DNA of 64,000 nucleotides from Artemia franciscana (taxonomy: Eukaryota > Arthropoda > Branchiopoda > Anostraca > Artemiidae): the NCBI RefSeq assembly GCF_032884065.1, contig NC_088864.1:23332486-23396485 (forward strand), in the 5' to 3' direction. Every line of letters begins with the position of its first letter. The first letter of the stretch is position 1. The position numbers were made by a program, and so were the translations under genes. Below are positions 38,801-59,433 of this stretch, piece after piece. Under the pieces are notes generated by a model. The model was not told the DNA's origin, ran no database searches, and worked only from the letters and a program-made list of their open reading frames with translations.

Positions 38801-41800
38801 TTCTTCAATACAAACTTCAGGAGCCCATTCTTCTTCTTGGAAAGGTAAAAAATTTCCAATTTCTCAATTTCTAATTTTTTGTTCTTTATTTTTTCTTTTC
38901 TTTTTTTATTATTACCCTGAGAGAAAGTACAGGCTGATACTTATTTGGATGTTTGTTTTTCACTATACATTATAAACTTATGGAAGCTTAAGATTTAATC
39001 TTTATCGAAAATACAATCAAATTCATTTGCAAATGGGAAAATTAAATATGACTAAGAATAGAGTAACAATTTTCAAATTAATTTGTAAGATTTCATCATT
39101 TTGCTTATAAAAAAAACTTAGACTTTGAGTCTAAACTTATTTCATTAATTTGTGGAAAAAAAGAATATTGTTTTCTACAGCTGTATTTAATATTGCTTTA
39201 ATTGCAGAACATTGCCAAATATCATGTATTCTCTGCTAGTTTATTGTTCACTTTTTCTAGATATTTTGCAAATGCATTCCAAAAGGCATACAAGTTTATT
39301 TTCTTAATGTGAGCAGCTATTAAGTCTGATTATGATTATACAAAAGTAGATATCTGTTTTCTAATTTAAATTGATACAAAAGGAAGCTGGGATAAGTTTT
39401 ACAAAGCTATTGGAAAATAAGATAGCAGCTGTTGAAAATAACTCTTTGCGTCTTTACAGTTAGATGTACAAAGACTTATTGTTCCAGGTGATGCATTGTA
39501 CTTACTAAGCATGCCTGTGTTTTATATAAATTATATTTTTGATAAACTTTACATGTCTTCTTTGGATCATGGCAACCAAAGTGTCGGAGTTTATTGTCTT
39601 TCTCCAAACAAAATAGCACATCCTCTCTTTTTCAACTGCTAAGAAAGGTTCCTATGGTAGGTCTTTATCTACTTTATCTGTTGGTAGGTCTTTTGTTTGT
39701 AAAGGTGTATTTTTACTGTTTTATAACTTGCAAGGGGAGACTAGCCATTTATTGGAAAAAATTGGAAGAAAGAGAGGTCTGCACCTCTACCTCAAATGCT
39801 ACCTGAAATAGTAGAAACAATTTTGTTGAATCTAAAAACTTACTTTTGTTGACACTAAAAAAATTTCAAATGTGGAAAACATTAACTTTGATTTGAGGAC
39901 GTATTAAAAGCTCTTTTTTGCTATTTTGGATTGTCCTAGTCTCTGGCCTAATGAATATTTTACTGATTGTTGTCATAAACATCATGCTGCTAGTGGAAAC
40001 AACGTCATTTAAATTAGTTTTAAGGCCAAAAAATAATATATGAAATAAATTGAGGTCTGTAAAATTTAAGTTGGTCTGTTTATTTATTTTTACTTCAAAA
40101 CTGAAAATACTGCCCAATATTATATTTCTTAATCCATTTTCTGGAGTTCTTGGTTAAGAATGCCAAAAAGTTTCCAAGATGGGTAATCAGTTTAGAGTTG
40201 TGGTACTTTTGCTTTAATGATTACTTAAACCATGATAGGGAAATGACATGCTTCTTAGAAAAACTCTTTGACAACTTCTCAAAAGGCTCAGACCATATAC
40301 ATCATGTGATTAACTTCGTTTAAATGATGTTTCTTATCCCGAATACGAGTTGTTACTTTGAGATCAATTTATAATCTGATTACATTTTGTTATTTGTAAT
40401 GGGTCATACTATTTTTCCTTTTCACCTAACAAGTTTATTTTTATTTTTAGGACCGATTCTCTGAAGTTGACATCCGTGTTCGCGTCAATGGTGGTGGTCA
40501 TGTAGCTCAAATCTATGCCATTCGTCAGTCTATTGCTAAGGCTCTAGTTGCTTTCTATCAAAAATGTAAGTGTTATTAGTTGAGTGTAATGGATTAGAAT
40601 TTTATAAATATTTTAATGTGTAACAGTGATTCTATTGCCTCTGGTAAGTTGGAATTGTTACATTATCCTTCATTGTTATTTTAGTCAGCCTGAGATAATA
40701 GATTAGTCAATTAGTCATCAGTCGTTTGACTGTTATTACCATCGCTATCATCAGCTAATTTGTTTGCGAATTGCAAATACATTTAATTTTTTTTATTATG
40801 CCTTTTTGGTATCAGTTGTATGTTTGAGTCTGCTGATAGTGCGATCCTGAATGCTGGCACCAAATGAACTTTGCATTCTACATTTGCATCAAACCCGACT
40901 TTGCAGTTCAAATAAATCTTAAGAATTTATTTTTGTCAGGTCTCACGATTTTTATGCACATTTAATACGAATTGATAACTCGTTTGATTCCCAAGTTTAT
41001 TGCTCCACTTTTTGTTGACTCTGACCTTAACATATTGAAATTAGCCACTTCTATTTTGTTTTCTTCAAGGGAATTCCACAGGTGGTAAAATAAAGGTCGT
41101 TTTGTGGGCGCGTTCAACAGAAATCTCTTGATATTTCTTTGAGTGGTCTCTGGCAGAGGTAGTGGTTGGCTGGCAGAACAGGATCAGTTGATGATTAATT
41201 TCTAAGCAATAATAACATTCTCTTGATTAAATCTATATAAAGATTTGGTGGCTATAATTTTTTATTAGTAGTTGCTGATAATTTTTTTTATTGTCTGACG
41301 AAGCAACAGTATTGATGTGGAAGTTAAATTTAAGCTGATGTTTGAGAACGGCACCTAGGCATCTCCTGATGTCCAGATGTCAACCACTTCAAGTAAAAGA
41401 TAACAAAAGCACATATCAGTTATAGTATCTTGTGATGAGACAGCAATTAATTCTTCATTAGTTGACCAGTCTCTGGACACGTTCGCTTTGTGTTGAATTT
41501 GTTAATTTTATTGACTAGTTTTTCATTGGGTGCATTACTAGTGCTGGCAAATATTTGAAGTTCGTTTTTTAGTTCTGTGTTCAAAGGTGATATGCTCAAT
41601 TCATTGCAATGAACATTTATACATTATGAATAAATATTCCTTAAACAATTACTATATATTCCATTGGCCCTGAAGATGCTGCAAGACTTGGACTTTTTGT
41701 CTAGGATTTAGTTATGTAGGCAAAACGATATTTTTTTTCAAAATTTTGTAGAGAAGGATCTAATATCTATAATAAGTGATGGTATTTCAATTTTTTTTTG

Positions 41801-44800
41801 TTTTTTTTGGCGAAATTGGACTGCTGTTTGTTAAAAAAGAAAATAATAAAGTGCAAACTGATCGTGAAAATTTTCTAATACAATTTGAAAATGCCGAAGA
41901 TTTTCCTCTTATCGTTGTTTTTTGTGTTAAACATTTTTTGAAGTTTCTTTTTGGTTGAATTTTACTAATTTTAAACATAAATAACCATTGCACAGAAAAA
42001 AGAAGACTAAAAATGCTGGTTGTAATTTGTTAACCTCTCCACGCACCTGAAGGGGTTTATTGACTCGAACTGTATTTCGCGATAGGAATATAGTTGTCCC
42101 AAAAAAAAAATCGAATGAATGTGATACTGAGTACTGACAGGATCCTATTCACTCAGAAAAGTCATCAGTTGGGGGTTTTGTCCTCAAGTGAGTGCATGGT
42201 GTAACGGTGATAGTTTTTTTTTATTATTATTTATTAAGACTTGACTGTTTGTTTTGGTTCAAATACAATACAAAGGGAAATGAGTGAGCATCAAGAAATA
42301 TCCCTCTAGTTACTTCAGATTCATTTAACTGCAAAGTGGAATTTGTAGTTTAAACCCATTGTTCTTGTCTCATTGTACAGGAAGATTCTGGTCCATCAGC
42401 TGAAGTGGGAAATCGGACTGTAAATTTTAACGAACAACTACCGTTGGCCACATAAATGCACCATTCCAGTTGCAGATTGGCTCCCTCGGATTCTAATTCT
42501 CCCTCGGTCTATCATGGGGAGTTTTAATGTTGCAAGTCGCACATTCAATCAAACTTTCAACTATACCAACTCTGAAGTTGAGCACGTCCTTCCTAAAATG
42601 TTTTATATTTTTACCGCCTCACATCGTATCAAGCTATGTATTGCTTATTTCCATGTCAATCATGAGAAATATGCCCCTAAGCGTCTATTTTAGATTTGAT
42701 GAGGATGCAATACAGGGCAATAAGACGGTCGAGTTTTTCTATGTCTCCCATGTTCTGTTATTACAAAGTGCTAACTTTTGGCTGCTTAACCTGGATGAAT
42801 TTTCAGTTCGCTTTTTCCCGTTTTAGAACTTAATCGTTGTTTCTGCTGCCTATATGTGTTAAGGTCATATGTTCTGGGTTGTTGTCCAGCTACTTGAAAG
42901 CTACCAGTTTATCATTCCATTCAACCACCTAATGAGGTAATCTTTGTCCTCTCTTTCAAGTGCTACACGAAGCAGCTAGTTAGCACAAATAACACTGGTC
43001 CAGTAAATCCTTTAAATCATAAACTCTAGAAACAGATGATCTCTGGCGGAAAATTAGTCACAGAACACTTCTGGAGATGGTGATGACTGGACGGCAGTGA
43101 CGTGCTGGAGAACCATCCCTGATTTCAGAATAAAATTATGTAACCTGGGGACCAGATTTGTCCTGTCTTTATTTTGGGAAGGGGGGGGGGGTGTGGTCCA
43201 AGCTGACATTCAGAGAGGAACAAAATCCATTACTGGGCTTACTTTCCAAAGCCTGTCTTTGACAGGCGAATCTTGATCCGCGTCTTTGTCTACCACTTGA
43301 AGGTTGGTTCGAAGTCTTTGGGACCGAATATTCAGTACGCTGGCTATCAATACCAAGAGTTTTAAAACCTAAACATTCTATTCCTTGGATACTTGAAAAC
43401 TCCCAGAACTACGTGCATACGGACATACATTGTGATGATTGAAGCAGTTGCCACATTGGATTCTCCTGTCTGTAGATGCTGTATATGTGGATTTGGCATT
43501 AAGGTCATAAACTTCTCTTGGAAGTATCCGTTGGAAAATCAATTAGTCCTTTGGGTTTCATCGTTAGGCCTCCCAGACCATTATTTTCTCTTTGGTATGA
43601 GCGCTTTCATTTGAGTTGAATTGCAGAATTCAAGTATTAGTTTGAATTTCTATAAGGTTCCCATTTTATTTAAACTTAAATAAGAATTTTCAAGTTAGTT
43701 GTGCAACAGGAGCTCGGTTGAAATTAGTTATTTCATTTGTATATGCAAATTCTTAGAAGAATAAATTCGTTTTGATAGTTTGATTTCATCATTATTTCAC
43801 GAGTGAATTTTGTTTTCCAAAAGCTGTAACATTGGATTTTTTTATTTAGCAAGAGGTATATGCCAAATCCTCTAAAATTCCGAGTCATTTAAGGACCTGT
43901 TAAGTTGCTCCAAATTAATTTTGTTGTATTTAGAGTTATGATTACTGTGCTGTTTCTGGTCCATAATGTTTGCCAAATTTGGAATCAATCAGAGAACATT
44001 AACTTAATTACAATTCAGATTTAAGCAGTGGCGCCAAAAGAGGAAGGTGGACTAGGCATTTGAACCCCTACCCCAATGGGAGGGCAAAATGTTTAGGCGT
44101 TCTTCCTGAGAAAGTAAATATCAGATGTGTCCATTGGTTTTGGGCAGGATAATATCGTCAGTGTTTCGCCTTAAGCTCGAATCTGATATTTTTCACACGC
44201 CTGGGGTAATTGCAAAAGACCTTCGATAAGCTGTTCTCAAAGGGAATATCTGCATGGTAATTTAGATTAGAACAATGGAAGTATGATTGAATATGCATTA
44301 CCCTACTGATCCTCTCTTTGAATATAGCTCAAGAAACGGTTTTGGCAGTTATTTCATATGTTTGAAAATGTGGAACAGCAAAAATTGGTATTAAAAAAGC
44401 CTAAAAGGAACTAGTTCCTTTAAAAACTATTTAAAAAATGTTTGTCAGTTAAAAATGTCAGGTGATAATCGTAGGACCAAATCATTGACTCCTTGGATTG
44501 CGGGATTATTCACTATACTATTGCAATCCGTCTGCCTATGTCCTTTTATAAATCCAGTTCTTATAAGTAGTTTAGAATGAAGGATTTTCAACATATCTAG
44601 GCTAATGAAAGTATAAGAGACTCCAGTTTGGAGCCCATTATTTACAAAATAACAGCCCTCATATAAGAGCCAATATCTTTTGATTGGATTTTCCAATTTG
44701 TGGGATTCCTTATTTGAAGTATAGGTTTTAGTTTTAGCCAAGTATATTATTTGGTAGTACGACAGTTTAAGATATTCATTGCGTAAAAAGAAAATAATTA

Positions 44801-59235: not shown

Positions 59236-59309
59236 TTTTGTGTTGTGTTGTTTGAAATATCTTTTGACGATCTTTATTTTGGAGTGAACAATTTAATTTT
59301 TATTTTTAG

Positions 59310-59433
59310 GCTACATTAGTGGTGGTTTGACATCTTTGTTCGTTTCATTGGTAATAACAAATCGTTATTATGGTTGGTTGGTCGTTCTATATGGCTTTTG
59401 CCCACTAGACGCTCAAATTGTTTGCTATCAAAT
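59310..59433 (+). pseudogene. decayed RPS16 exon-3 copy (e)
   Basis: Acceptor TATTTTTAG ends at 59309; donor AAAT|GTAAGTTGTTAC lies at 59431-59445. The match to exon 3 is clear in GACATCTTTGTTCGTTTCAT (true GACATCCGTGTTCGCGTCAA) and GTTTGCTATCAAATG (true GCTTTCTATCAAAAATG). Its middle is replaced by other sequence. Confidence 0.65.

What the first reader, a model, noticed from the sequence alone, without database searches (positions are those of the whole stretch)
40324..59433. RPS16 intron-2/exon-3 module multiplied five times downstream, with the intronic element better kept than the exon
Seen: six copies of ATGATGTTTCTTATCC...AATACGAG (40324, 47316, 49522, 51074, 53686, 59184). Each is followed after about 67-81 nt by exon 3 or by a decayed exon-3 copy with an acceptor; four of the five copies keep the GTAAGT donor. 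The 20-nt core is nearly identical in five copies, whereas the exon copies have lost uS9 signature residues. Known: ribosomal-protein introns often host C/D snoRNAs, and snoRNA copies spread with flanking exons that then decay. Inference: selection or conversion acts on the small element, making this a candidate snoRNA or regulatory-RNA cluster downstream of its source gene.
Basis: partly seen in the sequence, partly recalled or inferred. Interest (0 to 1): 0.85.

Follow-up and report, generated by a model that had tools for sequence, protein, structure and literature searches.

The report
RPS16 intron snoRNA copied with exons
A small RNA that probably guides a chemical mark onto ribosomal RNA sits inside a ribosomal-protein gene, and has been copied five times just downstream together with a scrap of the gene whose protein message has mostly decayed while its splice signals were kept.

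Summary
Six copies lie on the + strand at the stated places; all five genome hits with at most one mismatch to the 21-nt core are in this window. The element reads as an intronic box C/D snoRNA: C box ATGATGT, 11 Watson-Crick bases (13 with one G-U) to this genome's own 28S rRNA, a degenerate D' ACGA, and an aligned D box CTGA in four of six copies. Guide and target are those of vertebrate SNORD50 (28S G2863), but Rfam SNORD50 scores are far below threshold, so membership is not claimed.

The 27-nt core shows 7 inferred changes, against 173 over 115 sites in exon 3. The splicing frame also survives: an acceptor in 5 of 5 downstream copies and a GTAAG donor in 4 of 5 (neutral simulation about 3e-5 and 5e-4), while coding content has decayed in most. 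Best reading: cis-duplicated snoRNA+exon modules kept as snoRNA-bearing introns with non-coding exons, in various states of decay. Copies 1 and 5 look intact, 6 nearly so; 2 has lost the guide, 3 and 4 a box. No expression data or relatives were available.

The parts
35800..38844 (+). RPS16 5' part: exon 1 (motif ESVQVFGRK at about 35808, ends not fixed) and exon 2 (about 38713-38844)
   Evidence: exon 1 motif; exon 2
40319..40385 (+). Copy 1, source snoRNA in RPS16 intron 2: C box 40324-40330, guide TTCTTATCCCGAA 40331-40343, D' ACGA 40345-40348, D box CTGA 40376-40379 (outer ends approximate)
40451..40565 (+). RPS16 exon 3 (acceptor AG 40449-40450, donor GTAAGT 40566-40571)
44976..45121 (+). 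RPS16 last exon with stop codon (start approximate); lies upstream of all five extra copies
47316..47446 (+). Copy 2: C and D boxes kept, guide lost, acceptor kept (G 47446), donor lost
49522..49780 (+). Copy 3: guide intact, C box mutated (ACGATGT), no CTGA D box; acceptor G 49649, decayed exon 49650-49774, donor GTAAGT at 49775
51074..51315 (+). Copy 4: C box and guide intact, aligned D box lost (one-base deletion against copy 5; other CTGA at 51108 and 51145); acceptor G 51205, exon relic 51206-51309, donor GTAAGC at 51310
53686..53929 (+). Copy 5: C box, guide, D' and D box (53737) intact; acceptor G 53817, exon relic 53818-53923, donor GTAAGT at 53924
59184..59439 (+). Copy 6: C and D (59232) boxes intact, guide with one C>T that turns the base facing the predicted target G into a wobble; acceptor G 59309, decayed exon 59310-59433, donor GTAAGT at 59434
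50504..54460 (+). Tandem duplication carrying copies 4 and 5 (50504-51853 against 53115-54460, 1365 columns, 85% identical; units about 2.6 kb apart)

Best explanation
RPS16 intron 2 carries a roughly 67-nt box C/D snoRNA. It pairs with 28S rRNA at UUCGGGAUAAGGA and, by the +5 rule (recalled) with ACGA as D', would direct 2'-O-methylation of the G equivalent to human 28S G2863, a site served by SNORD50. Local DNA-level duplication copied the module [snoRNA - acceptor - exon 3 - donor] downstream five times, and copies 4 and 5 come from a later tandem duplication. Because C/D snoRNAs of this kind are released from spliced introns, selection on the copies kept the snoRNA core, its distance to the acceptor, a usable acceptor and the donor, while the exon lost its coding role. 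The result is a nascent non-coding snoRNA host gene, or a spliced 3' extension of RPS16, made of ribosomal-protein exon relics, with several copies already dying. Shown: anatomy, complementarity, differential conservation, splice-site retention. Inferred: transcription, splicing, snoRNA maturation, methylation.
For: Core 27 nt: 7 changes, against 173 over 115 sites (exon 3), 81 over 40 (5' flank) and 78 over 44 (intron 3 start); 0 of 50,000 random draws of 27 neutral sites as low. In 400,000 simulations calibrated to exon divergence none gave copies 3-6 each with at most 1 change. 11 WC (13 with one G-U) to own-genome 28S in copies 1, 3, 4, 5, and 13 with two G-U in copy 6. The Rfam alignment puts the SNORD50 guide and D' in the same register; SNORD50 guides C2848 and G2863 (PMC6466398, passages). 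Donors: P 5e-4 for at least 4 of 5 keeping GTAAG; 0.0015 to 0.00024 against random neutral sites, 0.0025 with copies 3-6 alone. Acceptors in 5 of 5: P 2.75e-5; in each of six copies the only YAG with at least 11 of 15 pyrimidines within 60-200 nt of the C box lies at 125-131 nt. The copy with the lost guide (2) is also the one with the lost donor. RPS16 exons 2-4 are found only at this locus.
Against: Rfam gathering search of the window: 0 matches. SNORD50 scores 15.4, 14.0 and 14.8 bits for copies 1, 5, 6 (cut-off 42); it is the best family by E-value for copy 1 only. An 11-mer match to 3.3 kb of LSU, 5.8S and spacer occurs in 2.2% of shuffled elements, and 114 such 11-mers lie in the window on both strands, so complementarity alone is weak. 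D' is degenerate (2 of 4 bases). Folds are no better than shuffles in 6 of 6. Three of six copies have lost the guide or an aligned box. Column by column the 30 nt before the acceptor are hardly better kept (39 changes) than exon 3; only a usable acceptor is retained, and 1748 of 6380 110-nt spans of the window hold one by chance (2.2% for a 7-nt span). The simulation has no insertions or deletions, uses a tree drawn by eye, five related copies, and an alignment partly anchored on the donors. No expression data.
Confidence: 0.66

Rival explanations
1. The RPS16 intron snoRNA (copy 1) is real, but all five downstream copies are unexpressed debris of local duplications; the core looks conserved because copies are young or by chance.
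For: Copies 2, 3 and 4 have lost the guide or an aligned box; exon copies 3 and 6 have stops; tandem duplication is clearly active.
Against: Exon identity to the source is about 49-62% in copies 3-6 while the core is 26-27 of 27 (exon bounds there off by one to two bases); splice sites kept beyond neutral expectation.
Confidence: 0.22
2. Gene conversion from the source copy, not selection, keeps the core alike.
For: Copies 1, 4 and 5 have identical cores; the locus recombines.
Against: Identity in the 40-nt 5' flank is only 15-40% for copy 1 against 3-6 and copy 3 against 6, while the core beside it is 25-27 of 27; a short tract that always starts at the functional boundary is not what conversion gives. 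Donor and acceptor retention is not explained.
Confidence: 0.05
3. The exon copies are alternative coding exons of uS9.
For: Copy 4 keeps the acceptor-phase frame open over 34 codons with recognisable motifs; copy 5 keeps the homologous frame open.
Against: All copies lie downstream of the last exon with its stop codon; copies 3 and 6 have stops in the acceptor-phase frame; copy 5's homologous frame is out of phase with its acceptor; exon lengths are 125, 104, 106 and 124 (copies 3-6) against 115.
Confidence: 0.02
4. The element is another kind of conserved intronic RNA or splicing element, not a C/D guide.
For: Weak Rfam scores, degenerate D', no stable fold.
Against: C box, guide, D' position, D box and intron position fit C/D, and the guide coincides with a known C/D target in the same register.
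Confidence: 0.05

Closest known systems
SNORD50 (U50), Rfam RF00278, hosted in SNHG5/U50HG in mammals
   Same: C box followed by a guide CUAUCCCGAA to the same 28S site in the same register; about 70 nt; intronic
   Different: Score far below the Rfam cut-off; D' ACGA instead of CUGA; no second guide for the C2848 equivalent among the matches listed; host is RPS16, not a non-coding host gene
Cis-duplicated intronic snoRNA clusters (chicken and platypus paralogues, GAS5-like host)
   Same: Local duplication of a snoRNA into neighbouring introns; non-coding host exons (PMC2653536, passages)
   Different: Here each copy carries a piece of a ribosomal-protein exon that decays while its splice sites stay, and the array lies beyond the gene's last exon
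Non-coding snoRNA host genes with neutrally evolving exons (SNHGs)
   Same: Exons evolve neutrally around intronic snoRNAs (PMC11405852, passages)
   Different: Here the exons can be traced to a coding exon a few kilobases away; expression unknown

Membership tests
Box C/D snoRNA | C box RUGAUGA | tested here: met
   ATGATGT in 5 of 6 copies, ACGATGT in copy 3; last base U instead of A
Box C/D snoRNA | D box CUGA near the 3' end | tested here: met
   Aligned CTGA in copies 1, 2, 5, 6 (4 of 6); lost in 3 and 4, though copy 4 has another CTGA 71 nt after its C box
Box C/D snoRNA | D'/C' boxes | tested here: inconclusive
   ACGA in 6 of 6 but matches CUGA at 2 of 4 bases; C' only degenerate, by eye
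Box C/D snoRNA | Guide of at least 10 nt complementary to rRNA next to D or D' | tested here: met
   11 WC to own-genome 28S in copies 1, 3, 4, 5; copy 6 with a wobble; copy 2 none. 18S not tested
Box C/D snoRNA | Terminal stem and K-turn, binding of 15.5K/NOP56/NOP58/fibrillarin | tested here: inconclusive
   Folds no better than shuffles in 6 of 6; protein binding not testable with these tools
SNORD50 (RF00278) | Score above the Rfam gathering cut-off (42 bits) | tested here: not met
   15.4, 14.0 and 14.8 bits for copies 1, 5 and 6; copies 2, 3, 4 only in the whole-window gathering search, no match
SNORD50 (RF00278) | D' guide to 28S G2863 equivalent in the same register | tested here: met
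   Alignment; own 28S target; register assumes ACGA is D'
SNORD50 (RF00278) | Second guide to 28S C2848 equivalent | tested here: inconclusive
   Not among the four best runs of at least 10 nt printed per copy; shorter matches not examined
Non-coding snoRNA host gene | Spliced transcript without coding capacity carrying snoRNAs in introns | not testable with these tools
   Splice signals and their retention were tested; transcripts were not

The most novel reading that the evidence does not exclude
A non-coding snoRNA host gene caught while forming from fragments of a ribosomal-protein gene: modules of snoRNA plus one coding exon were copied past the gene's end, and selection then kept only the snoRNA and the splice sites, so that former codons became filler between snoRNA-bearing introns.
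Probability: 0.45. Interest if true: 0.6.

Novelty: new variant of a known kind. Interest (0 to 1): 0.47.

Why it matters
Exons of non-coding snoRNA host genes evolve fast, which makes their origin hard to trace (inference). Here the exon copies can still be traced to a coding exon a few kilobases away and show different stages of decay, which makes the 'protein exon turned splicing scaffold' route directly testable. It also suggests a guide for a SNORD50-type 28S methylation, in a ribosomal-protein host, in what is probably an arthropod genome.

Tried and rejected
Genome hits of a 16-mer on C1 and C14 (two of six) were read and have unrelated flanks. Nine other C-box+guide patterns in the genome (12 hits, three of them in this window, against 25 for the reversed control) were tested: 0 of 9 have the 11-nt match (best 10), and 2 of 9 (L025, L031) have a CTGA 40-100 nt on. 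The five SNORD50 model hits elsewhere at E up to 10 (25-28 bits, best E 0.66; 64 of 681,793 candidates were scored, and 12 of 14 control genomes also ring at that level) lack TATCCCGAA in 5 of 5; one (L058) has its last 8 bases. A 10-nt second match of copy 1 to the rRNA stretch is not listed for the other copies and was dropped as chance. Region bounds were off by one to two bases around exon 3 and the donor; one search gives corrected figures, and only core, flank and approximate exon identities are used. Exon bounds of copies were also off by up to a few bases for the frame check; one search replaces that check and showed that copy 4, not copy 5, is open in acceptor phase. 18S motifs were not found in the fetched rDNA stretches (parts read N), so 18S complementarity was not tested. 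Papers (titles and abstract starts in listings unless passages are named): SNORD50 with RPS16 gave two papers, whose listings concern cancer; others (15 of 341 listed; 15 of 65; 12 of 14; 8 of 37; 8 of 19; 6 of 6; 8 of 29; 8 of 12) showed no report of this arrangement in what was listed. Passages of PMC3753356, PMC10324135 and PMC3511168 were also seen and not needed. Species: 1.27 Gb and contig sizes (nine contigs asked: C21 34.7 Mb, C22 0.26 Mb) point to 21 chromosomes and suggest a brine shrimp (Artemia) from recalled karyotype; not proven.
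Full report
What is there. The window lies on a 67-Mb contig of a 1.27-Gb genome. RPS16 runs on the + strand from exon 1 near 35808 (motif) to a last exon at about 44976-45121. A search with exons 2-4 gives three matches, all at this locus. Intron 2 holds the element at 40324. Five more copies follow downstream on the same strand, each joined to an exon-3 relic. 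Matches of the five to the source are 62-70% over 174-327 columns.

Confinement. The 21-nt core has eleven hits at up to 3 mismatches in the genome; five have 0-1 mismatch and all five are in this window (copies 1, 3, 4, 5, 6); the other six have 3 mismatches, and the reversed control gives 33. The tool warns that only best candidates are scored. Copy 2 is too diverged to be listed.

Anatomy. Copy 1 reads C box ATGATGT, guide TTCTTATCCCGAA, one base, ACGA as D', a degenerate C' region, and CTGA 52 nt after the C box start. This genome's 28S (L013, match to Rfam LSU_rRNA_eukarya) holds TTCGGGATAAGGA, giving 13 pairs of which one is G-U. Rfam's SNORD50 model aligns with the same guide and D' in the same register, at only 15.4 bits, E 1.6. 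For copies 5 and 6 SNORD50 is listed at 14.0 and 14.8 bits but other C/D families rank above it. SNORD50 guides 28S C2848 and G2863 (PMC6466398, two passages). By the +5 rule (recalled) the predicted site is the G equivalent to G2863. Complementarity alone is not strong: 2.2% of shuffled elements, and 114 positions on both strands of the window, reach 11 nt. Its weight comes from its place between C box and D', its coincidence with a known guide site, and the conservation below.

State of the copies. Copy 1: complete. Copy 2: boxes kept, guide and donor lost. Copy 3: guide intact, C box ACGATGT, no D box, donor kept. Copy 4: C box and guide intact, aligned D box lost by a one-base deletion (another CTGA lies 71 nt after the C box), donor GTAAGC. 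Copy 5: complete. Copy 6: boxes intact, guide with a C>T at the base that faces the predicted target G. So two copies look complete and one nearly so, of six.

Differential conservation. On a tree ((3,6),(2,(4,5)),1), drawn by eye from pairwise matches, the 27-nt core has 7 changes, against 37 over 36 sites for the rest of the snoRNA, 43 over 34 for the spacer, 39 over 30 for branch point to acceptor, 173 over 115 for exon 3, 81 over 40 for the 5' flank and 78 over 44 for the start of intron 3; none of 50,000 random draws of 27 neutral sites is as low. With copy 2 left out the core has 2 changes. Between copy 1 and copies 3-6 the 5' flank is 6-11 of 40 identical, the core 26-27 of 27.

Splice frame. 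In each of the six copies the only YAG with at least 11 of 15 pyrimidines between 60 and 200 nt after the C box lies at 125-131 nt. D-box end to acceptor is 71, 75, 77 and 74 nt in copies 1, 2, 5 and 6. Three downstream copies keep GTAAGT and a fourth GTAAGC. A neutral model calibrated to exon divergence gives 5e-4 for at least 4 of 5 copies keeping GTAAG and 2.75e-5 for all five keeping such an acceptor at a fixed place. Against random neutral sites the donor is conserved at P 0.0015 with all copies, 0.00024 without copy 2, and 0.0025 with copies 3-6 alone. Against this: the acceptor region is not conserved base by base; 1748 of 6380 110-nt spans of the window hold an acceptor-like site, 2.2% for a 7-nt span; the model has no insertions or deletions; and the copies are related. 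The numbers are supportive, not proof. That intronic C/D snoRNAs mature best some 70-80 nt before the acceptor is recalled knowledge, not a call.

Mechanism. The retained parts are those a splicing-dependent C/D snoRNA needs: boxes, guide, spacing to the acceptor, donor and acceptor. The protein code is largely lost: copies 3 and 6 have stops in the acceptor-phase frame and copy 5's homologous frame is out of phase; of these four copies, copy 4 alone keeps an open acceptor-phase frame, over 34 codons (copy 2, without a donor, was not tested there). All copies lie behind the last coding exon, so ordinary use for uS9 is excluded. Copies 4 and 5 sit in tandem units about 2.6 kb apart, which shows later duplication. 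Transcription, as an RPS16 3' extension or from a separate promoter, is inferred.

Relation to the known. Cis-duplication of snoRNAs within a host gene, and GAS5-like clusters, are known in vertebrates (PMC2653536, passages). SNHG exons evolve neutrally around snoRNAs (PMC11405852, passages). Ribosomal-protein introns often host snoRNAs; 27 cytoplasmic ribosomal-protein genes do in Drosophila (PMC2246290, passages). What may be new is the traceable origin of host exons from a coding exon a few kilobases away. Membership in SNORD50 is not claimed: the score test failed.

Noticed in passing
G000 (own genome), many contigs: 75 matches to COX1, 13 of them near full length, with internal TGA codons, on chromosomes and small contigs: looks like many nuclear copies of mitochondrial DNA.
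   Followed up: no
L013:4881-5318: The LSU rRNA match breaks at 4881/4903 and ends at model position 2342 of 3401; perhaps an insertion in this rDNA copy or a diverged unit.
   Followed up: no
25084-26872, 37097-37340, 61942-63940: Related repeats in three clusters of the window, one within RPS16 intron 1, also matched on contig C1.
   Followed up: no
55529-55651 and 55963-56085: Inverted repeat of 123 nt, 80% complementary, 311 nt apart, MITE-like.
   Followed up: no
51856-52124 and 56346-56615: Another duplicated stretch within the array, 85% identical.
   Followed up: no
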